A DNA stretch of 55,221 nt, taken from Bacteroidales bacterium. Lineage in GTDB: Bacteria; Bacteroidota; Bacteroidia; Bacteroidales; JAADGE01. The notes below the pieces were generated by a model, which was not told where the DNA came from, searched no databases, and worked only from the letters and a program-made list of their open reading frames with translations. The stretch lies in the NCBI GenBank assembly GCA_021108035.1, contig JAIORQ010000062.1, forward strand, positions 1-55,221. The letters run 5' to 3'. The translations under genes were made by a program, and so were the position numbers. Numbering within the stretch: the stretch's first letter is position 1; every line of letters starts with the position of its first letter. Positions 23,710-31,543 of the stretch are shown piece after piece.

Positions 23710-23728
23710 AGCTTTTTAGTAAAGAAAA

Positions 23729-23816
23729 AGTAACAAAATAAAAATATGACCTCTACACAATGAAGAAATATCAACCGGAAAAATTGTTTTTGTTACTGTT
23801 ATACAAATGTTAGCAT
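23729..23816 (+). other. Left-most degenerate attC-like site
   Basis: AGTAACAAAA at 23,729 pairs with TTTTGTTACT ending at 23,797 across a 40-base interior. TTATACAAAT then leads to GTTAGCAT at 23,809-23,816. The last part matches the L'-R' end of the attC at 25,634-25,763 (TTATACAAATCGTTG). GTTAGCAT is the exact complement of ATGCTAAC at the end of the following cassette. A trxA terminator role for the hairpin is an alternative. Confidence 0.45.
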
Positions 23817-23831
23817 TAATAAAGAATTAAT

Positions 23832-24410
23832 ATGGAAAACGAATTTACAGAAGTTATGTCTCAACGGACAGACGAAGAATTAATCAATATAGTAACTGTA
23901 CAGAGAGATGATTATAATCCAATCGCCGTTGAAGTAGCTGAAAATGAAATTAAAAGACGGGGTATTGACACAAGTGAATTTGAAGAAATAGGAAAAAAAA
24001 TAATTGTCGAAATTGAAAAAAAAGAGAAAATTGACAAAAATAATGCAAAATCTTTTTTGCGATTAATTAATCTCTTAATTGACACAGCTTCGATATTTAT
24101 TATAATTGTTATAATTAGTTTTTTTATTCAACCTATCGGAAAAGAAATGAATCATTTTTTAAGTCTTATAATTTCTATTGGAACTTATATTATCTATTAT
24201 TTGGTACTGGAAATTCAATTCAATAAAACAATTGGGAAATTCTTGACAAAAACAAAAGTCGTTACTGTGAATGAACAAAAACCGAATAAATCTGATATTA
24301 TTACTAGAACTTTTTGCCGTTTAATACCTTTGGATAAAATATCATTTTTGTTTACTAAAAACGGATTTCACGATAATTTTTCTGATACAAAAGTTATTAA
24401 TGATAGATAA
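23832..24410 (+). CDS. RDD-family membrane protein (cassette gene)
   Basis: This 192-aa protein starts with a soluble acidic segment of about 70 residues (EVMSQRTDEELINIVTVQRDDY; similar segments occur in other Bacteroidota membrane proteins). An RDD domain follows with FLRLINLLIDTASI and two or three membrane helices (about 80-135), then GKFLTKTKVV and ITRTFCRLIPLDKISFLF. RDD proteins include putative ion transporters; its role is unknown. It starts 16 bases after the cassette border and ends 13 bases before the R'' arm of its attC, the compact layout usual for cassettes. Confidence 0.75.
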   Translation: MENEFTEVMSQRTDEELINIVTVQRDDYNPIAVEVAENEIKRRGIDTSEFEEIGKKIIVEIEKKEKIDKNNAKSFLRLINLLIDTASIFIIIVIISFFIQPIGKEMNHFLSLIISIGTYIIYYLVLEIQFNKTIGKFLTKTKVVTVNEQKPNKSDIITRTFCRLIPLDKISFLFTKNGFHDNFSDTKVINDR

Positions 24411-24423
24411 AATGAAAAACTAA

Positions 24424-24599
24424 TGCTAACAAGCAAATAAACAACATGCGGTGAAGCAGAAATACGCAAGCATAAAGGGAATTTGCAAGGTCGCAAAAAT
24501 TTTGAAATTAAAATAATTTATAAGGCAAAAATTTGTGCTGTGAGCAAACCGAGAGATTGTCGGAATTAACTCCGCACGTTGCCTATTTAAACGTTACCT
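24424..24599 (+). other. attC-like recombination site 1
   Basis: The 176-bp site runs from R'' TGCTAAC (24,424-24,430) to R' GTTACCT (24,593-24,599). The inner arms are AACAACATGCGG and CCGCACGTTGCC, so the single strand can fold into a long imperfect hairpin as integron recombination substrates do. It shares length (176 bp), ATGCGG/CCGCACG arms and CGCAAAAATTTT with site 3. Confidence 0.7.
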
Positions 24600-24626
24600 G
24601 CAAGGTAAAGAAACATACTACAAACT

Positions 24627-25622
24627 ATGAGCGATAAGAATATAAATAATCTTACATATGATTTTGCAATCTCTTACGCTGGAGAGGATACAGAAATAGC
24701 AAATGGAATATTTCAGTCTTTATCGGAGAAGTATGATGAATTTAAAATATTCTTTGCCAAAAGGGACAGAAATAAATTAATAGGAGAAGATGGAGAAGAA
24801 TTCTTCGAAAATCTTTTTAATTCAGCAAAACAAGTTATTGTTATTTTATCAGAGAGTTACAAGAAAAAGGAATGGACTCGATATGAATGGGATATAATTA
24901 AAGAACGAAATAAAGAAAATCGCTGTATTCCTATCAAAGTTGATAATGTCAAGATTCTCGGTTTGCCATCTAATTTCATTTATCTAAAATTCGAAGGTGA
25001 TTATGAGGATATTGCAAATTTATGCATTGAGAAAATTGTTACTTATGAAAAAAATGCTGGAATAATAAGAAAATCTCGTTTGCAAAAACTAACAGAAGCT
25101 CTTGAAAACTCAAGAGGGACAGTTGATAAGTCCGTTCAGTTGGTTGTTGACAAAAGAGAAAGGACTCCTCTTCAAGATATTAATATGCCTGATGGTGATT
25201 TTGAGGCGTCATATAAGATTGTAAAAACAGAGGAATTGCCCTATTCGACAATACAAAGAATTATTGCACGAATAGATTTACCTGATAACTTGACGAAAGA
25301 AGAAGTTTCTTTTAATATCAAATATTGCACCGCTGAAATCTTTAATCAAAGAAAACCTGATGCTCTAGGTATTTTCGCGTATTGCTCAAAAGCTTCTAAT
25401 TTTCTTGGTTTTGAGAAATTTAATGTCGCCAAGTCTGATTTTGCACCATTTGGAGATTGGGGACAGGCAGAACAAGGATTCGCATATAATTTACCATCAG
25501 GTAAATTTGATTGGAAAATTGACTTTGAGGAAAGCTATTTTGATAAAAAAAAACGAATTCAGACATCTGAAGAATTAGCAAGAGAATTAGTAATGGAAAT
25601 GCCGAAAAACAAAAGGAAATAA
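24627..25622 (+). CDS. TIR-domain protein (cassette gene, putative defence effector)
   Basis: The 331-aa protein has an N-terminal TIR domain (about residues 9-140). YDFAISYAGEDTEIA is the first strand and box, IVILSESYKKKEWTRYEW carries the conserved Trp-x3-Glu (Glu87, the position of the NADase catalytic Glu in active TIRs), and RCIPIKVD follows. The C-terminal half (about 165-325, including CTAEIFNQRKPDALGIFAYCSKASNF) is a separate domain I do not recognise; it may sense a trigger. Bacterial TIR proteins often degrade NAD in anti-phage defence; that role here is inference. It lies alone in its own cassette. Confidence 0.75.
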   Translation: MSDKNINNLTYDFAISYAGEDTEIANGIFQSLSEKYDEFKIFFAKRDRNKLIGEDGEEFFENLFNSAKQVIVILSESYKKKEWTRYEWDIIKERNKENRCIPIKVDNVKILGLPSNFIYLKFEGDYEDIANLCIEKIVTYEKNAGIIRKSRLQKLTEALENSRGTVDKSVQLVVDKRERTPLQDINMPDGDFEASYKIVKTEELPYSTIQRIIARIDLPDNLTKEEVSFNIKYCTAEIFNQRKPDALGIFAYCSKASNFLGFEKFNVAKSDFAPFGDWGQAEQGFAYNLPSGKFDWKIDFEESYFDKKKRIQTSEELARELVMEMPKNKRK

Positions 25623-25633
25623 GAAAACCCAGC

Positions 25634-25763
25634 AGGTAACAATGTATAAAAATAATAGCCGACACAGTAGTAAATTCAAGAGTTGTAGCCCGCTTCAACT
25701 TTCTTGTGCCTTGACAGGAAAGTGCCACGCAGTCGGCTAATATTCTTATACAAATCGTTGTGC
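25634..25763 (+). other. attC-like recombination site 2
   Basis: The 130-bp site has R'' AGGTAAC (25,634-25,640), L'' AATGTATAAAAATAATAGCC, L' GGCTAATATTCTTATAC and R' GTTGTGC (25,757-25,763). GCCGAC and GTCGGC pair exactly. The same arms recur in the site at 30,022-30,816, showing they belong to one site family. Confidence 0.75.
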
Positions 25764-25773
25764 TTCATAAGAA

Positions 25774-26295
25774 ATGAGACGAATAATATTCATATTAATA
25801 ATTGTCACTTTGATTTTAAATTCTTGTGTGGATAATAATCATGTAAAATATAAAGCTTTACAAATAAGATTTTATCCGAGTTTCATGACTAATTCAACAT
25901 TTAATCTTGACCTGAACAAATGGGAATGTGAATTCATTATAGATAAAGGTGTAATCTTATTAGACAAGAATGAAATAATTGAAATTGATGAAACCAAAAA
26001 ATATTGGATAGAAATAGAGCCAAATGAAAGACAAGATTTATATAATCTAACAGATAAAATTACTCAACTTGATGACTTGGATGGTATTGGGAGAGATGGG
26101 TTGACTGTTTTTTTCGATATTATAACAAATATGAATGATACAATTACAAAAACGGCTTGGTCACCAAAAGAAGGAACAGTTGAATATGATTTGATGACAA
26201 AAGTTCAATATATTTCATATGAGATTCATGAACAAGAACTGTATATATACTTTAATGAATTAGAAAAATATAAACGAAGCACAACAAACAACTAA
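25774..26295 (+). CDS. Lipoprotein of unknown function (cassette gene)
   Basis: The 173-aa protein has a lipoprotein signal with LNSC (Cys18). The mature part is rich in acidic and aromatic residues, with WECEFIIDKGVILLDKNEIIEID and an NDTITKTAWSPKEGTVEYDLMTK segment. I do not recognise the family. The last residues (RSTTNN) and the stop codon are encoded by the R'' arm and following bases of attC site 3, so the recombination site shapes the C-terminus. Start codon lies 17 bases after the cassette border. Confidence 0.65.
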   Translation: MRRIIFILIIVTLILNSCVDNNHVKYKALQIRFYPSFMTNSTFNLDLNKWECEFIIDKGVILLDKNEIIEIDETKKYWIEIEPNERQDLYNLTDKITQLDDLDGIGRDGLTVFFDIITNMNDTITKTAWSPKEGTVEYDLMTKVQYISYEIHEQELYIYFNELEKYKRSTTNN

Positions 26296-26454
26296 AAAAT
26301 CATGCGGTAGTCGTAAATTGAAAACAAGAGCAAGAAATTGGCTCCGCAAAAATTTTAATTTATAATAACAAAAGATAAGGCAAAATTTTGGCTAAATTGC
26401 AAACTGAAAAGTTATCAGAAAATATGCCGCACGCTTTTTAGTCAACCGTTCAGC
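26279..26454 (+). other. attC-like recombination site 3
   Basis: This 176-bp site runs from R'' GCACAAC (26,279-26,285) to R' GTTCAGC (26,448-26,454). ACTAAAAAATCATGCGG pairs with CCGCACGCTTTTTAGT. It resembles site 1 in length, arms and interior (CGCAAAAATTTT, ATAAGGCAAAA). Confidence 0.7.
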
Positions 26455-26474
26455 AAGCCATAACAAATAAAATA

Positions 26475-26732
26475 ATGACAGATGTTAAATTAGCATATTA
26501 CAAACAAAAAGATTGGAAAAGGTTTATCAGTTTGATTGATGACAGAGAAAGCATGCATGATAGTTGGGAAGAGTGGTATAATGCCTTTCTGAAAACTAAA
26601 CAAGGATTGATAAATCAAGGATTAAGGGTTTTTGATATTGAGGTTGATTTAGATAAGCTAACAGAATATTGTAAAATTCACAAGATAAAAAATAACGGGA
26701 AAGCACGCTCTCAATTTGTACAATCACAATAA
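26475..26732 (+). CDS. Small cassette-type protein of unknown function
   Basis: The 85-aa soluble protein reads as one helical domain with DSWEEWYNAFLKTKQGLINQG and DLDKLTEYCKIHKIKNNGKARSQFV. It resembles, from memory, small hypothetical proteins carried in cassettes and genomic islands; I cannot name the family. It begins 20 bases after the attC 3 R' arm. No attC follows it, and the DUF58 gene starts 6 bp after its stop. Confidence 0.6.
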   Translation: MTDVKLAYYKQKDWKRFISLIDDRESMHDSWEEWYNAFLKTKQGLINQGLRVFDIEVDLDKLTEYCKIHKIKNNGKARSQFVQSQ

Positions 26733-26738
26733 AAACAC

Positions 26739-27659
26739 ATGAAAAACATAGATGACATAAGCGAACTCAAGCAATTTGAAAATCTTGAACTTCTTGCAAA
26801 GTTGGTAGTTGAGGGTTTTATTACCGGCTTACATAAAAGTCCGTTTCACGGATTTTCTGTTGAATTTGCTGAACATCGATTGTATAATACCGGAGAGTCA
26901 ATTAAGAATATTGACTGGAAACTGTACGGCAAAACAGATAAAATGTTTGTAAAACGTTATGAAGAAGAAACCAACCTACGCAGCCGCATTATTATTGATA
27001 CCTCTTCTTCCATGTTATTCCCTTATAAAGAAAAGCACAGGCAAACTAAACTTATGTTTTCTGTGTATTGTGCGGCATCATTAATTCATCTTTTAAGAAA
27101 GCAAAGAGATGCTGTAGGTTTAACCCTCTTTTCCGATGAACTTGAGTTACATACGCAAACAAAAATGTCTTCTGTTCATTCAAGGTTGTTATACGGAAAA
27201 TTAAATCAATTAGCCTTTGGAGACATTCCTTTAAATAAAAAAAGTAAGCCGGCGGAACTGCTTCATTTAATTTCGGACAAAATACATAAACGCTCCCTTG
27301 TAATTATCTTTAGTGACATGTTCAGTTCCGAAGATCCGGAAAAACTGTTTTCGGCCTTGCAACACCTCAAACACAGCAAACATGAGGTAATTCTTTTTCA
27401 TGTAACAGATAAAGATCATGAAGCTGAATTTAAATATCATAACCGTCCGTATAAATTCATTGATATGGAAACAGGCGAAACCGTAAAACTCAATCCGAAT
27501 GAAGTAAGGGATTATTACAAAAATTCATCCGGACAGTTTTATAATAATCTGAAATTAAAATGCGGACAATATAAAATTGATTTCATTCAAGCCGATGTTA
27601 AATCCGATTTTAAGGAAATACTTGTTCCTTATTTGATTAAGAGGAGTAAGTTACATTAG
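26739..27659 (+). CDS. DUF58 (von Willebrand A-like) protein
   Basis: This 306-aa protein is of the MoxR-associated DUF58 family. SPFHGFSVEFAEHRLYNTGESIKNIDWKLYGKTD-type residues form the DUF58 core (about 34-66). It is followed by a VWA-like fold with the MIDAS DTSSS (Asp87) and VIIFSDMFSSEDPE. The usual MoxR and Bat genes are not adjacent. It is probably the ancestral neighbour of trxA now separated by inserted cassettes; that is inference. A 9-base match to the preceding cassette end inside the conserved EFAEH codons is judged a coincidence. Confidence 0.85.
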   Translation: MKNIDDISELKQFENLELLAKLVVEGFITGLHKSPFHGFSVEFAEHRLYNTGESIKNIDWKLYGKTDKMFVKRYEEETNLRSRIIIDTSSSMLFPYKEKHRQTKLMFSVYCAASLIHLLRKQRDAVGLTLFSDELELHTQTKMSSVHSRLLYGKLNQLAFGDIPLNKKSKPAELLHLISDKIHKRSLVIIFSDMFSSEDPEKLFSALQHLKHSKHEVILFHVTDKDHEAEFKYHNRPYKFIDMETGETVKLNPNEVRDYYKNSSGQFYNNLKLKCGQYKIDFIQADVKSDFKEILVPYLIKRSKLH

Positions 27660-27721
27660 AAGGTTTAAGACAACATTTTTATTTTCTGTTTATTGATTTT
27701 TAATTTTCGTGCAGATACAGA

Positions 27722-27998
27722 TTACCAATACCAATCTTCAAAATCTTGTTCAAATACTGTTGCTTGTTCATTTGTCAGACAGCTTTTTTGAGTATCGACA
27801 ACTATAATGTCAATTGCATCAGTCGGATGATTTTTTGCTTTTTGTATGTATTCTATATCCGCCACTTATAACACGTTCAATTTTTTGCTTACTTTTTTGA
27901 AAATCCTGAAAAAAATCTTGAAAATCAGTCAAGAGTAATGCTTTTTCGGCAATCTTCAATATATTTTCCTTAACATAAGCATATAAATCGTCATATTG
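27722..27998 (-). pseudogene. Decayed C-terminal coding remnant after the DKNYY gene
   Basis: Directly after the TAG stop of the DKNYY gene the same frame continues as QYDDLYAYVKENILKIAEKALL...KSKQKIERVI. A frameshift near 27,865 then moves reading to another frame with VADIEYIQKAKNHPTD, AIDIIVVDTQKSCLTNEQ and the final WYW stop. The composition is clearly protein-like. It is either a C-terminal extension of the DKNYY protein lost by a nonsense mutation and a frameshift, or the end of an unrelated gene joined by deletion. Confidence 0.5.
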
Positions 27999-28940
27999 CT
28001 ACTGATCTTTTATAGCTTTCCCGTATTTATATTTGGAATTTTTGTCTGATGCATCAAATTTATCGCTATTGGATTCATTTACTATAAAGCTTTGATTATC
28101 TGCTTCTTTAATGATTTCAGATTTATAATAAACATTGTTTTTATCTTTAGAATAATATTTTTTCAACAGAGGTTTAAAGCTCTCGGAATCAATATTCTCA
28201 ATAATATATAGTTGAGTTGTGTCTTTTATTTGTTCACGTTCGCAGTTGCTTTTTTGAATATCGAATAAGTAAGCATTTTTTTTGTCTTTATAAAATCGAT
28301 AAGAATAATACCCGTATTTTTTTGATAATTCTATACTAATAAAACTTTTACTGTCTGCATTATTTATTTTTCGCAATGGGAAATAAGTTCTGTAAACATT
28401 AAATTTATCTGCCACAAATAATTCATCAATTACTTTTAGGCTTGCGATGTCTTCTGCTCCTTGAATTAACTTTTCGTGATAAAATAAATTGCTGTCATCT
28501 TTTGCGAAATGTAAACCTATTTGCTCGAAAGTATTAGTATTTGCTTTTGAAATTATGTGTTGGTTACAGTATGCTCTATTTTTATCTTTTGAGAACATAT
28601 AACCAATGTATTCAAATGTTTTGGGGTCGGCATTTTCAATTCTTATGTTTTTAAAATAAACATTTTTATTATCCCTGCCCCAAAGGGAACAAGTAAAACA
28701 GTCTTCAAGAGTAGCTTCATGGGCAATAAGTTTGAAGGTTTCGGGATTGGCTTCTTGTAATTTTTTGCGAATTGTTCTTCCTGTTTCGGTTTGATATTCG
28801 TAAACGACCTTGCCTCTGTGCAATTTATAACATTTTCCGTAATTTTTCATGGTTTTATGTTCTTGTACTACACATGACGAAAAAACTACAAAGTATATAA
28901 AAACAGTAATATGTAATAATTGTTTTCTCACAATAAGCAA
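27999..28940 (-). CDS. DKNYY-family lipoprotein
   Basis: The 313-aa protein has a lipoprotein signal ending in FSSC (Cys23). Several copies of the DKNYY repeat follow: KDKNRAYCNQHIISKANTNTF, KDDSNLFYHEKLIQGA, KDKKNAYLF and KDKNNVYYKSEIIKEADNQSF, each a KDKNxxYY...A...F unit. The family is found in surface lipoproteins of unknown function. The chain may be truncated, because coding-like sequence continues in frame after the stop codon. Confidence 0.7.
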   Translation of the reverse strand: MLIVRKQLLHITVFIYFVVFSSCVVQEHKTMKNYGKCYKLHRGKVVYEYQTETGRTIRKKLQEANPETFKLIAHEATLEDCFTCSLWGRDNKNVYFKNIRIENADPKTFEYIGYMFSKDKNRAYCNQHIISKANTNTFEQIGLHFAKDDSNLFYHEKLIQGAEDIASLKVIDELFVADKFNVYRTYFPLRKINNADSKSFISIELSKKYGYYSYRFYKDKKNAYLFDIQKSNCEREQIKDTTQLYIIENIDSESFKPLLKKYYSKDKNNVYYKSEIIKEADNQSFIVNESNSDKFDASDKNSKYKYGKAIKDQ

Positions 28941-29024
28941 TATTTATTTACGGTAATTTGTTGGCAGGAAGAAAATTCTGTGTTTTTTTGTAACAAAAAT
29001 ACAATAATCATATGTTTTTATATC

Positions 29025-29948
29025 CTAATTATTTATCTTGATAACAGTTTGGTATAAATTGATAATTTCATTATTATATTCTGTTGCTTCATTTTCAATT
29101 ATTTTAAGTTCACTTTCATTTATTTCTCGTTTTCCTTTTCCTTCCTGAAATTTTACTAAATTGTCGTAATAATAGTATGAACTGTTTTCGATAAATTTGT
29201 CTGTTATTTCCCCGTTTTCTATATTAAACCCGGATTCATTTACATAAAAAATCTTATCCCCGAGAAAAAAAAATGAATTAACATATCTTTTTGAGTCATT
29301 TTCTGAAATATCATCGATTTTTGCAAATAATGATTTCCCGGTGTATTTTTCATAATGTCTGCCCGGATGAATTTCTTCATACACAAATTTAGAGAGTTTA
29401 CCTCTTTCAATTTCTGCATTAAGTTCTTTAATGTAGTACTTGATTGTTTTAGTAATTTGCTCGACATCAGCTTTCTGTTTTTTCGGTTGAAATACAGTAA
29501 AACCTGTTTCACTCGGCTGTAGTCCTGAAATTTCATTGGTTTCATGCTTGTGTTTGCCGTTATCAAGAACATTGAATGATTTGAAATTAAGTATTACATT
29601 TCCGTTTGGAAGTATTTCACCATCAACTTTTTCTTCATACCCTTCGCCGGACATGTTAGTATATTCTTTGCTGTCAATTACATTAAAGCTCGTATCCATA
29701 AGCACAAACAGGCATACGTTTGAAATTGGATATGTTTTGAAAACATATAATTTATCATGAGTGAAAGATGCTTGATGAATTTTTATTGAAGAAAATTCTA
29801 TATTTCCCTTTTGTTTGAAAAAATCGTAAATATCCACTTTTTGGTTTTGTTCGCTTGTTGTATTATCAGATTTTGTTTCATTTTTACTGTCGTTGCATGA
29901 AAATGAAAATATAAAAATCATTAATAATAATAAATGTCTTTTTTTCAT
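29025..29948 (-). CDS. Lipoprotein of unknown function
   Basis: The 307-aa protein starts at MKKRHLLLLMIFIFSFSC (lipidated Cys18), giving a better start than one 23 codons upstream. A polar Ser/Asn/Lys linker follows. The remainder is mixed alpha/beta with many aromatic residues and no recognised motif. The gene begins about 74 bases inside a cassette border (GTTAACC on the minus strand at 30,028-30,022) created by attC site 4, so it may be a cassette gene, although no attC was found at its 3' end. Confidence 0.6.
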   Translation of the reverse strand: MKKRHLLLLMIFIFSFSCNDSKNETKSDNTTSEQNQKVDIYDFFKQKGNIEFSSIKIHQASFTHDKLYVFKTYPISNVCLFVLMDTSFNVIDSKEYTNMSGEGYEEKVDGEILPNGNVILNFKSFNVLDNGKHKHETNEISGLQPSETGFTVFQPKKQKADVEQITKTIKYYIKELNAEIERGKLSKFVYEEIHPGRHYEKYTGKSLFAKIDDISENDSKRYVNSFFFLGDKIFYVNESGFNIENGEITDKFIENSSYYYYDNLVKFQEGKGKREINESELKIIENEATEYNNEIINLYQTVIKINN

Positions 29949-30021
29949 GTTTATTTTTTGTATTATTCTTTGATTATAAAATATTTGTGAAATTTTTGTT
30001 TTCTTGAGTCCCGACAAATTG

Positions 30022-30816
30022 GGTTAACGTTGAGTGTAAGAATAGTAGCCGATTGCACGTGTATAACTTATCAAACCGATACAAATTTGAAACGGCCTAT
30101 AACCGCTCGAAAATCTACTATCCCGGCTATTATTTTTACACATTGTGTGTGCCCTGCATATGCAGCAATGCACAGACTGCAAGTTAGAATAAAAATTCCG
30201 AAAAAACGAATAAACTTTTATTATAACAAGCAGTTTGCGTTCAATTTATTCCAAGAGGTGAAAGTCCATTATGGGTTGGGATTAAAGCCCTAACCATTAG
30301 TAAGCCGAAAGGGTGAAAATCGCGAGATTTTATCTGAAGATTATTTGCGATTAAGCAAAAACCGCATTTACCGGGAGAGGTCTCTGTAGTCGCGTGTCGG
30401 TATAACAGAGAAGTCAGCCGAAGTCATAGTAGGAAAAGCATTGTAATGATGCCTTGTGGCAATATAAAAGGTGTACCTAACTGATAAGAAGCGAAAGCCG
30501 AGCGAACAGAGCCTACGGTCTTATCCCATATTAGAAGCCACAGCCGAAGGACAGAACCCCGAATCAAGTTCGGGGCAGGCTATTGGAAGTGTTATCGTGA
30601 ATTTAATTTCATACCCAAAACATTGAAGGGCGATACCGAGTGTAGGGTAACGGTTAAAGGAGTGATATCTTTTATCTGATGAACCGCCGAGTACAGCCTG
30701 TTCCGAAGCATTTCGGAAAGACCCGTATGCTCGGTGGCCCCGAAATAAATACGGGATAAATATTGAGAGGCGTACCGGCTACCATTTGGTAGTCAGCCGT
30801 CTATTTGATTATCGCC
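30022..30816 (-). other. attC-like site 4, interrupted by a group II intron
   Basis: Read on the minus strand, the arms are AATGTGTAAAAATAATAGCC and GGCTACTATTCTTACACT, nearly those of site 2, ending in R' GTTAACC (30,028-30,022). The R'' arm is split: CAATG lies next to the intron and GGCGATA lies beyond it. Joining the exons at 30,146 and 30,810 gives GATAACAATGTG, with the required AAC triplet. The joined site is about 132 bp, the size of site 2. It lies just after the stop codon of the minus-strand Fnr-like gene. Confidence 0.65.
30147..30809 (+). ncRNA. ORF-less group II intron inserted in attC
   Basis: About 663 nt with group II intron landmarks: a 5' end GTGTGCCCTGC, the segments GAGGTGAAAGTCC and AGTAAGCCGAAAGGGTGAAA typical of domain I, and a domain V-like GAACCGCCGAGTAC...GTATGCTCGGTGG (30,681-30,737). 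The 3' end is GTCAGCCGTCTATTTGAT. No reverse transcriptase/maturase ORF is present, so splicing would need one in trans. The orientation is opposite to the attC and cassettes, and the insertion is within TTGT|T, as described for group IIC-attC introns. Palindromic inserts interrupt at least domains V and VI, so activity is uncertain. Confidence 0.7.
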
Positions 30817-30818
30817 TT

Positions 30819-31490
30819 TTAGTTTAAAAGTTGTATAAGTCTTTCTCTATCAATTATTTTAATTTTCTTATTTTTTATTTCAAGAAAAGAATCTTTTTTA
30901 AGTTGCAGTAGATTCCGGGTGAGAACAGGTCTTGTGATACCAAATAATGCAGCCAGTTCTTTATGGGTTTTTCCTAACATAAAACTTGTTTTACCCTCAT
31001 TTTCTTTTTCTAAATCCAGTATGTAATTTGCAAGCTTTGCTTTAACAGATTTAATCATTAAAAATTTAATTTTATCAGTTACAATTACAAATCTGTTAGA
31101 AATTATATTTAAATAATTATCCAAGATTTTTTTGTTGTTATTTAAAAGCTTGAGTAAATCATTTTTATAAATTATAAGAATTTTAGCACTTGTTTTAGCG
31201 ATAACATTTATCAGTAGTTTGTTCTTGTCAGCAAATAAAAATGCTTCTGCAAAAGTATCGGGAGCATGAATTTCGCTAATTACAATATTTTTTCCGGTAT
31301 AATTAAACATTTCGCCTCTGACACTACCGGCAAGCAAAATGTAAAGTTTTTCACACTTATCACCACTGTATGCTATAATGTGTTCAGGCTCATAAGAACG
31401 AATCTGATAATGTATTGTGTTTAAAAGTCGGATTATTTCAGACGCATTAACTCCCTTGAAGACAGGTGTTTCAGATATTTCGTTAATCAT
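30819..31490 (-). CDS. Crp/Fnr-family regulator, probably of hcp (HcpR-like)
   Basis: The 223-aa protein (start at MINEISETP) has an N-terminal cyclic-nucleotide-binding-like beta barrel (HIIAYSGDKCEKLYILLAGSVRG) and a C-terminal helix-turn-helix (KTHKELAALFGITRPVLTRNLLQL). Fnr-type N-terminal iron-sulfur cysteines are absent. It is divergent from hcp, with a perfect palindrome in between, the arrangement of NO-responsive HcpR regulators in anaerobes. Its stop codon lies 9 bp from the recombined attC arm, so its 3' flank was remodelled by the cassette event. Confidence 0.85.
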   Translation of the reverse strand: MINEISETPVFKGVNASEIIRLLNTIHYQIRSYEPEHIIAYSGDKCEKLYILLAGSVRGEMFNYTGKNIVISEIHAPDTFAEAFLFADKNKLLINVIAKTSAKILIIYKNDLLKLLNNNKKILDNYLNIISNRFVIVTDKIKFLMIKSVKAKLANYILDLEKENEGKTSFMLGKTHKELAALFGITRPVLTRNLLQLKKDSFLEIKNKKIKIIDRERLIQLLN

Positions 31491-31519
31491 TTTTAGTTGT
31501 AAAGGTAAAGAAAATATGT

Positions 31520-31543
31520 AAAATGTAACCAAAGTTACATTTT
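31520..31543. promoter_or_regulatory. Crp/Fnr-type operator in front of hcp
   Basis: AAAATGTAAC at 31,520-31,529 and GTTACATTTT at 31,534-31,543 are exact inverted repeats around a 4-base spacer. The half site TGTAAC/GTTACA has Crp/Fnr geometry. It overlaps the -33 element of the hcp promoter, and its centre is about 40-45 bases before the expected transcription start, the position of a class II activator site. Confidence 0.75.

What the first reader, a model, noticed from the sequence alone, without database searches (positions are those of the whole stretch)
30022..30816. Group II intron sits exactly inside an attC site and its removal restores the site
Deleting 30,147-30,809 joins the flanks to GATAACAATGTGTAAAAATA on the minus strand, recreating the R'' AAC triplet and arms of site 2 (GGTAACAATGTATAAAAATA). 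The intron runs opposite to the attC orientation and the junction is TTGT|T. Both are described features of group IIC-attC introns. Finding this retrohoming pattern, with an ORF-less intron, in a Bacteroidota cassette island is unusual.
Basis: partly seen in the sequence, partly recalled or inferred. Interest (0 to 1): 0.85.

Follow-up and report, generated by a model that had tools for sequence, protein, structure and literature searches.

The report
Broken intron in a cassette-recombination site
A decayed, protein-less group IIC intron sits cleanly inside a gene-cassette recombination-like site of a Bacteroidota bacterium, and it belongs to a family of such introns whose landing sites point to an integron-like cassette system in that phylum.

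Summary
Removing it rejoins GATA|ACAATG, the A|AC point of an attC-like R'' box (TTGT|T on the other strand), opposite to the cassette direction, as described for group IIC-attC introns.

Two corrections. This copy is probably dead: it lacks a conserved domain I block (Rfam RF02001, 110-140 bits in relatives) and has inserts in the domain V loop and before domain VI; its genome has no maturase over the cut-off. And the pattern is not unusual in Bacteroidota: a capped scan gave 88 likely members; 65 abut a model site exactly, and 20 of 35 with a located 3' end lack an RT motif.

The landing sites form a coherent class: 17-bp stem, compensatory changes in 15 pairs, two mostly G.T pairs, one orientation within loci. 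The model matches 143 of 296 Bacteroidota genomes. An Xer/IntI-like integrase lies upstream of sites in four records, but weaker homologues do not share that arrangement. Recombination is untested.

The parts
30147..30809 (+). group IIC-type intron, 663 nt, ORF-less, internally deleted in domain I
   Evidence: ends fixed by homologues; D1D4-1 signature 30386-30450; alignment with 8 correctly placed ORF-less relatives
30022..30146 (-). attC-like site, the part left of the intron (R' box, both stem arms, inner part of R'')
   Evidence: R1 match 86.6 bits on the bottom strand; in the training set
30810..30816 (-). outer part of the R'' box (GGCGATA), separated from the rest by the intron
   Evidence: rejoined site; sister genome G015 carries GGCGATAAC uninterrupted
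30684..30737 (+). domain V: stem kept, AG/CT where Tenacibaculum has TA/TA; 30-nt loop with a palindromic insert
30738..30763 (+). 26-nt insert between domains V and VI
   Evidence: absent from the other rows of A2
30766..30809 (+). domain VI hairpin and 3' splice site ...CTATTTGAT
25639..25763 (+). second attC-like site, uninterrupted, 3' of a TIR-domain gene
   Evidence: R1 match 88.7 bits; Pfam TIR_2 for 24627-25622
30819..31532 (-). Crp/Fnr-type regulator whose stop codon lies just before the R'' box; 97% identical protein in sister genome G015
27685..30808 (.). 3.1-kb stretch absent from the same place in sister genome G015; holds the interrupted site and two minus-strand genes
23711..26739 (.). 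3.0-kb stretch absent from the same place in G015 (154 nt of it occur elsewhere on that contig); holds the TIR gene and the second site

Best explanation
The insert is a copy of a Bacteroidota clade of group IIC-attC introns. An ancestor with a full ribozyme, helped by a maturase encoded in cis or in trans, reverse-spliced into the folded bottom strand of an attC-like cassette site at TTGT|T in the R'' box. That split the site from the gene in front of it (a crp-type regulator). The copy has lost part of domain I and gained inserts, so it is now most likely an immobile, non-splicing relic. Shown: ends, target geometry, orientation, the family, the missing block. Inferred: bottom-strand reverse splicing, the helper, whether the deletion came before or after insertion, and loss of activity.
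For: Ends confirmed by homologues. Rejoined site matches the site type. Of 88 family members with a 5' flank ending in GT, 65 abut an R1 match exactly; 42 of the 44 training rows come from these loci, so for those adjacency is not independent. Before any model was built, 60.7% of 84 such flanks reached an arm-complementarity score of 10, against 2.6% of 38 other pattern hits and 1.9% of 2,480 random stretches. A sister-genome homologue, L054, also lies at an R1 match (70.5 bits). Same A|AC position in named plasmids of Tenacibaculum, Chryseobacterium and Persicobacter. RF02001 110-140 bits in ten of ten introns of six relatives' loci, no match in this copy; the distance between two domain I landmarks is 151 nt here and 264-335 nt in eight relatives. 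Domain V pairs 1-4 vary and stay paired in 53-56 of 57 distinct sequences.
Against: Rfam's domain V/VI model RF00029 does not reach its threshold in this copy; among the six relatives' loci only L079, L113 and L194 reach it. I could not locate EBS1 by covariation and did not test EBS3. Of three sister-genome homologues with a 5' end, only L054 lies at an R1 match; L052 and L057 do not. The domain V stem is intact and its loop insert is shared with other copies, so some activity with the insert cannot be excluded.
Confidence: 0.88

Rival explanations
1. The hairpin sites have nothing to do with cassettes: they are terminators or a dispersed palindromic repeat, and the intron is an ordinary terminator-targeting IIC intron.
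For: One homologue (L057) follows a terminator-like hairpin; 23 of 88 members do not abut a model match; in the own genome 19 sites lie on 14 contigs, not in one array; no site on the short contig with the own genome's integrase homologue.
Against: 58 further matches in the intron loci (one only 2 nt from an intron start) all lie on the strand of the intron-bearing site; 61 matches in 50 kb of Persicobacter plasmid pPP2 lie on one strand with 50 of 52 genes on the other, though 21 of the 61 score under 40 bits; AAC/GTT boxes outside the stem.
Confidence: 0.12
2. The window copy is still active: it splices and moves with a maturase in trans although it is ORF-less and shortened.
For: Domain V stem paired; the sister genome G015 encodes two proteins over the maturase cut-off; Chryseobacterium and Persicobacter plasmids carry ORF-less and RT-bearing copies a few kb apart.
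Against: The RF02001 block of domain I is missing; no second full copy in the genome, only 3' pieces; no maturase over the cut-off in the own genome.
Confidence: 0.08
3. The ORF-less members are all independent decay products of RT-bearing introns, with no ORF-less lineage that spreads as such.
For: ORF-less lengths vary from about 325 to 707 nt; the window copy and L052 have different internal deletions.
Against: Tenacibaculum has two ORF-less copies of 595 nt, 99.5% identical, at two different sites; Belliella has two ORF-less copies 99.3% identical over their first 543 nt at two different sites. Such copies have moved or been duplicated.
Confidence: 0.35

Closest known systems
group IIC-attC introns (S.ma.I2 type)
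   Same: insertion in the R'' sequence at TTGT/T, opposite to cassette transcription, also in arrays without an integrase; S.ma.I2 splits a gene from its attC (passages read in PMC7923331, and PMC8876359)
   Different: Bacteroidota hosts, AT-rich sites of another consensus, many members without RT; this copy decayed
group IIC introns after terminators
   Same: part of this family sits after simple hairpins
   Different: 65 of 88 members abut attC-like model matches; PMC4424553 says that attC is the smaller fraction for IIC introns (passages)
integron attC sites and CALINs
   Same: hairpin sites of about 55-130 nt with RYYYAAC-like and GTT boxes, roughly one per gene in pPP2, one orientation, the bottom strand folding better
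   Different: strand asymmetry goes with two mostly G.T pairs in the stem; classical sites use extrahelical bases (recalled); the nearby integrase lacks about 60 positions of the IntI model (shown for the own-genome homologue)

Membership tests
group IIC-attC intron | insertion at TTGT|T in the R'' box of an attC site | tested here: met
   criterion from PMC7923331 passages; the site is attC-like, not proven attC
group IIC-attC intron | orientation opposite to the cassette gene | tested here: met
   intron on +, site and crp-type gene on -
group IIC-attC intron | 5' GUGYG and 3' CUACUCGAU-like ends | tested here: met
   GTGTG...CTATTTGAT, shared with homologues; the consensus is recalled
group IIC-attC intron | domain V/VI recognised by Rfam RF00029 | tested here: not met
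   no gathering match in this copy; met by relatives in L079, L113, L194
group IIC-attC intron | complete domain I with EBS1 | tested here: not met
   RF02001 block absent; EBS1 not located
group IIC-attC intron | class C maturase encoded in the intron | tested here: not met
   no such ORF; none over the cut-off in the genome; 15 of 35 relatives with a located 3' end have YxDD
integron attC site | R''/R' boxes around a hairpin with covarying stem | tested here: met
   17 pairs, 15 with changes on both sides, 44 sites; GTT and arm complementarity were selection criteria for the 44, which favours paired stems
integron attC site | bottom strand folds better than the top strand | tested here: met
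   42 of 44 training sites; 37 of 37 pPP2 sites chosen by score from 61, none in the training set
integron attC site | extrahelical bases | tested here: inconclusive
   the consensus shows G.T pairs where the asymmetry lies; extrahelical bases were not searched for
integron attC site | recombination by an integron integrase | not testable with these tools
   needs an excision assay
integron integrase IntI | over the TIGR02249 cut-off, with the IntI-specific insertion | tested here: not met
   Chryseobacterium protein 206.7 bits and own-genome C90 protein 199.1 bits against a cut-off of 265; C90 matches positions 4-179 and 239-313 only

The most novel reading that the evidence does not exclude
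Bacteroidota carry a phylum-wide integron-like cassette system of their own. It has an attC class whose strand choice is marked by two conserved G.T pairs, and an Xer/IntI-like integrase without the IntI insertion, oriented with the cassettes. A dedicated and often RT-less IIC intron lineage parasitises it. The introns act as a natural footprint that finds the sites without any integrase. (Odds lowered from 0.5 on checking: the integrase arrangement rests on four records with six, two, one and one sites.)
Probability: 0.45. Interest if true: 0.85.

Novelty: new variant of a known kind. Interest (0 to 1): 0.6.

Why it matters
The papers that I could see report few integrons in Bacteroidetes: IntegronFinder 2.0 names In0 elements and one complete integron in Salinibacter (PMC9024848, passages). 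Here a site model derived from intron landing places matches 143 of 296 Bacteroidota genomes. If these sites recombine, much cassette exchange in Bacteroidota has been overlooked, and the introns give a way to find it that needs no integrase. [quoted passage not shown]

Tried and rejected
Rfam gathering search of the window: nothing. Phage collection: no match to the intron. Covariation search for EBS1 against 5' exon positions -1 to -8: no convincing column (z at most 4.5, scattered). Search for a group II maturase in the own genome: one 363-aa frame at 45.3 bits against a cut-off of 300, rejected. The RT intron of G015 in L237 has a different domain V and L076 another domain VI; neither is an obvious partner of this lineage. 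The crp-side sequence in G015 looked to me like the left arm of another attC-like site, but R1 does not match it at E 0.5; I use only the fact that homology stops at GGCGATAACA.

Literature: ten searches; 'group IIC' with 'attC' and 'Bacteroid' gave 0 papers. Of the papers cited I saw passages only. Three papers on IIC-attC introns are not held, so prior description in subscription journals cannot be excluded.

Rows dropped before counts: 39 of 127 pattern matches whose 5' flank does not end in GT (counts printed before it failed). Most look like chance matches in genes, but L141 and L199 look like true introns lost by this rule. Of the 88 kept, 53 have no located 3' end, mostly because the stretch is cut. 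Lengths are approximate, since several calls do not end at the GAT; of the 20 called ORF-less, L101 and L139 rest on weak 3'-end matches (E about 0.002) and L107 runs into a second GTGTG start. In alignment A2 the row L181 has wrong coordinates and must be ignored. In one search the Adhaeribacter 5' end was set by guess and is wrong. In one search, domain V pairs 5-7 were imposed by the search expression and say nothing.

Against the integrase reading: of 13 homologues of the Chryseobacterium integrase in the loci (itself included), the four strongest lie upstream of and in the direction of the cassettes (L208, L235, L195, L234); the nine weaker ones point the other way relative to sites in the same locus (my comparison).

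Full report
Observation. The stretch 30,147-30,809 begins GTGTGCCC and ends CTATTTGAT. Deleting it joins TTTTTACACATTGT to TATCGCC, which on the minus strand is GGCGATA|ACAATGTGTAAAAATAATAGCCG, followed by a loop and CGGCTACTATTCTTACACTCAACGTTAACC. That is a hairpin site like the one at 25,639-25,763. The ends do not rest on the window alone: in sister genomes three homologues (L052, L054, L057) begin to match exactly at GTGTRCCC, and twelve distinct places match to the last base, each followed by T before diverging.

What the insert is. The group II signature AGAAGTCAGC..GAAGTCATAGTA is present (RF01998, 21.4 bits, below gathering). Domain V is recognisable and paired, with AG/CT where Tenacibaculum has TA/TA; at the four pairs not fixed by my search expression, 53 to 56 of 57 distinct sequences keep a standard pair. 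ORF-less relatives of 583-674 nt occur in Tenacibaculum, Chryseobacterium, Persicobacter, Belliella, Algoriphagus and Maribacter. Against them the window copy lacks the block that Rfam calls RF02001, which scores 110-140 bits in ten of ten introns of six relatives' loci. Between two domain I landmarks it has 151 nt where eight relatives have 264-335. It carries a 30-nt domain V loop with a palindrome, and a 26-nt insert before domain VI. I read it as a relic; splicing was not tested.

The genome. The own genome (4.96 Mb, 95% complete) has one full-length copy and several 3' pieces of related introns, no maturase over the TIGR04416 cut-off and no IntI over the TIGR02249 cut-off. Site model R1 finds 19 sites at E below 0.01 on 14 contigs; 150 of 8,324 candidates were scored. 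In sister genome G015 the crp-hcp segment is 98% identical to the window up to the insertion point, and homology stops at GGCGATAACA, that is, at the R'' core. Window stretches 27,685-30,808 and 23,711-26,739, each with one site, are absent from that place. Gain or loss of cassettes at these sites would leave this picture, but two genomes cannot show the mechanism.

The family. Of these, 88 have a 5' flank ending in GT. The other 39 were dropped; most look like chance matches in genes, but L141 and L199 are probably true introns. Among 84 GT-ending members with 200 nt of flank, 60.7% reach an arm-complementarity score of 10 next to a GTT, against 2.6% of 38 other hits and 1.9% of 2,480 random stretches that begin with AC. 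Of 35 members with a located 3' end, 15 contain YxDD (1,842-1,989 nt) and 20 do not (about 325-707 nt). Tenacibaculum has two ORF-less copies of 595 nt, 99.5% identical, at different sites, and Belliella two that are 99.3% identical over 543 nt, so copies without RT have moved or been duplicated. A Chryseobacterium plasmid holds an ORF-less and an annotated ltrA copy, and a Persicobacter plasmid an ORF-less copy and one with a 432-aa YADD frame. Of 88 members, 23 do not abut a model match: some are short sites of about 55 nt, some look like terminators, some lie at contig ends.

The landing sites. Forty-four of them, chosen for a GTT and arm complementarity, were aligned as bottom strands. RNAalifold gives a 17-bp stem, 15 pairs with changes on both sides; one pair is G.U in 39 of 44 and another in 30 of 44. 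On the complementary strand these are A.C mismatches, and the bottom strand folds better in 42 of 44 sites and in 37 of 37 of the better-scoring pPP2 sites, none of which was in the training set. Model R1 finds 123 matches in 84 loci that include the intron loci (563 kb) and none in 34 other loci from the same scan (256 kb), at E 0.01. Fifty-eight of the 123 are not at an intron start, except that one of them lies 2 nt off; all 58 have the strand of the intron-bearing site. In 50 kb of Persicobacter psychrovividus plasmid pPP2 there are 61 matches, 21 of them under 40 bits, all on one strand, with 50 of 52 annotated genes on the other. R1 matches 143 of 296 Bacteroidota genomes at E 1e-4, the own genome included, with at most 11 candidates scored per genome, and 0 of 17 genomes with non-Bacteroidota titles. 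That control is small and holds no known positive.

The recombinase. On the Chryseobacterium plasmid a 347-aa protein that NCBI names site-specific tyrosine recombinase/integron integrase lies upstream of six sites, in cassette direction. It scores 221.5 bits with NF040815 (cut-off 220) and 206.7 with the IntI model (cut-off 265). Its three strongest homologues in the loci have the same orientation: L235 (two sites), L195 (one site) and L234 (one site, 13 kb away). Nine weaker homologues point the other way. The own genome has a homologue on contig C90, which matches IntI positions 4-179 and 239-313 with a gap where I recall the IntI insertion; no site was found on that 7-kb contig. By sequence the nearest solved structures are XerC-like and XerA proteins, then IntI4.

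Reading. The geometry is that of group IIC-attC introns: R'' box, TTGT/T, opposite orientation (PMC7923331, passages), and S.ma.I2 likewise splits a gene from its attC (PMC8876359, passages). So it works like one, and by target and ends it belongs there, but this copy fails the tests for a complete domain I and for the Rfam domain V/VI model. What I did not find described is the scale in Bacteroidota, the high share without RT, and the site class. General statements that Bacteroidota have integrons are in print (PMC9668308 and PMC8618304, one passage each). I found no paper on attC arrays of this kind in Bacteroidota in the ten searches listed, but the library lacks the main papers on IIC-attC introns.

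Noticed in passing
L083:1179-1265 (Escherichia coli plasmid NZ_CP106955.1): The last 87 nt of this Bacteroidota intron family (86% identical to the Tenacibaculum copy) lie about 20 nt beyond the tet(X4) stop codon, in the opposite orientation, as expected of an intron between a cassette gene and its attC. The search with the Tenacibaculum intron matched 372 plasmid records, 184 Escherichia; of the Escherichia records only this one was inspected.
   Followed up: partly
L080:4003-4690 and L107 (minus strand, start 6686): In Persicobacter and Flavivirga the 3' end of one intron is followed directly by GTGTGCTGTGAG, which looks like the start of a second IIC-type intron in tandem.
   Followed up: no
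window 30695-30724; L108, L156, L002: The domain V loop carries a palindromic insert at the same place in this genome and in two Algoriphagus introns; common ancestry or repeated insertion is open.
   Followed up: partly
G000:C84:1381-6250 (L030): Four pieces that hold only the 3' end of such introns lie within 5 kb; three share an upstream stretch that reads like the end of a transporter gene.
   Followed up: no
window 24627-25622: The gene in front of the uninterrupted site encodes a TIR-domain protein, a possible defence gene carried as a cassette.
   Followed up: no
L204, L205 (IMGVR_UViG_2883400621_000001): A contig filed as viral carries three copies of the 5' end, two of them with YxDD, at attC-like sites; it may be a plasmid or island rather than a virus.
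   Followed up: no
L208, L235, L195, L234 against L207, L169, L205, L095, L117: Stronger homologues of the array-side integrase run with the cassettes, weaker ones against them; whether these are two integron layouts or unrelated recombinases is open.
   Followed up: partly
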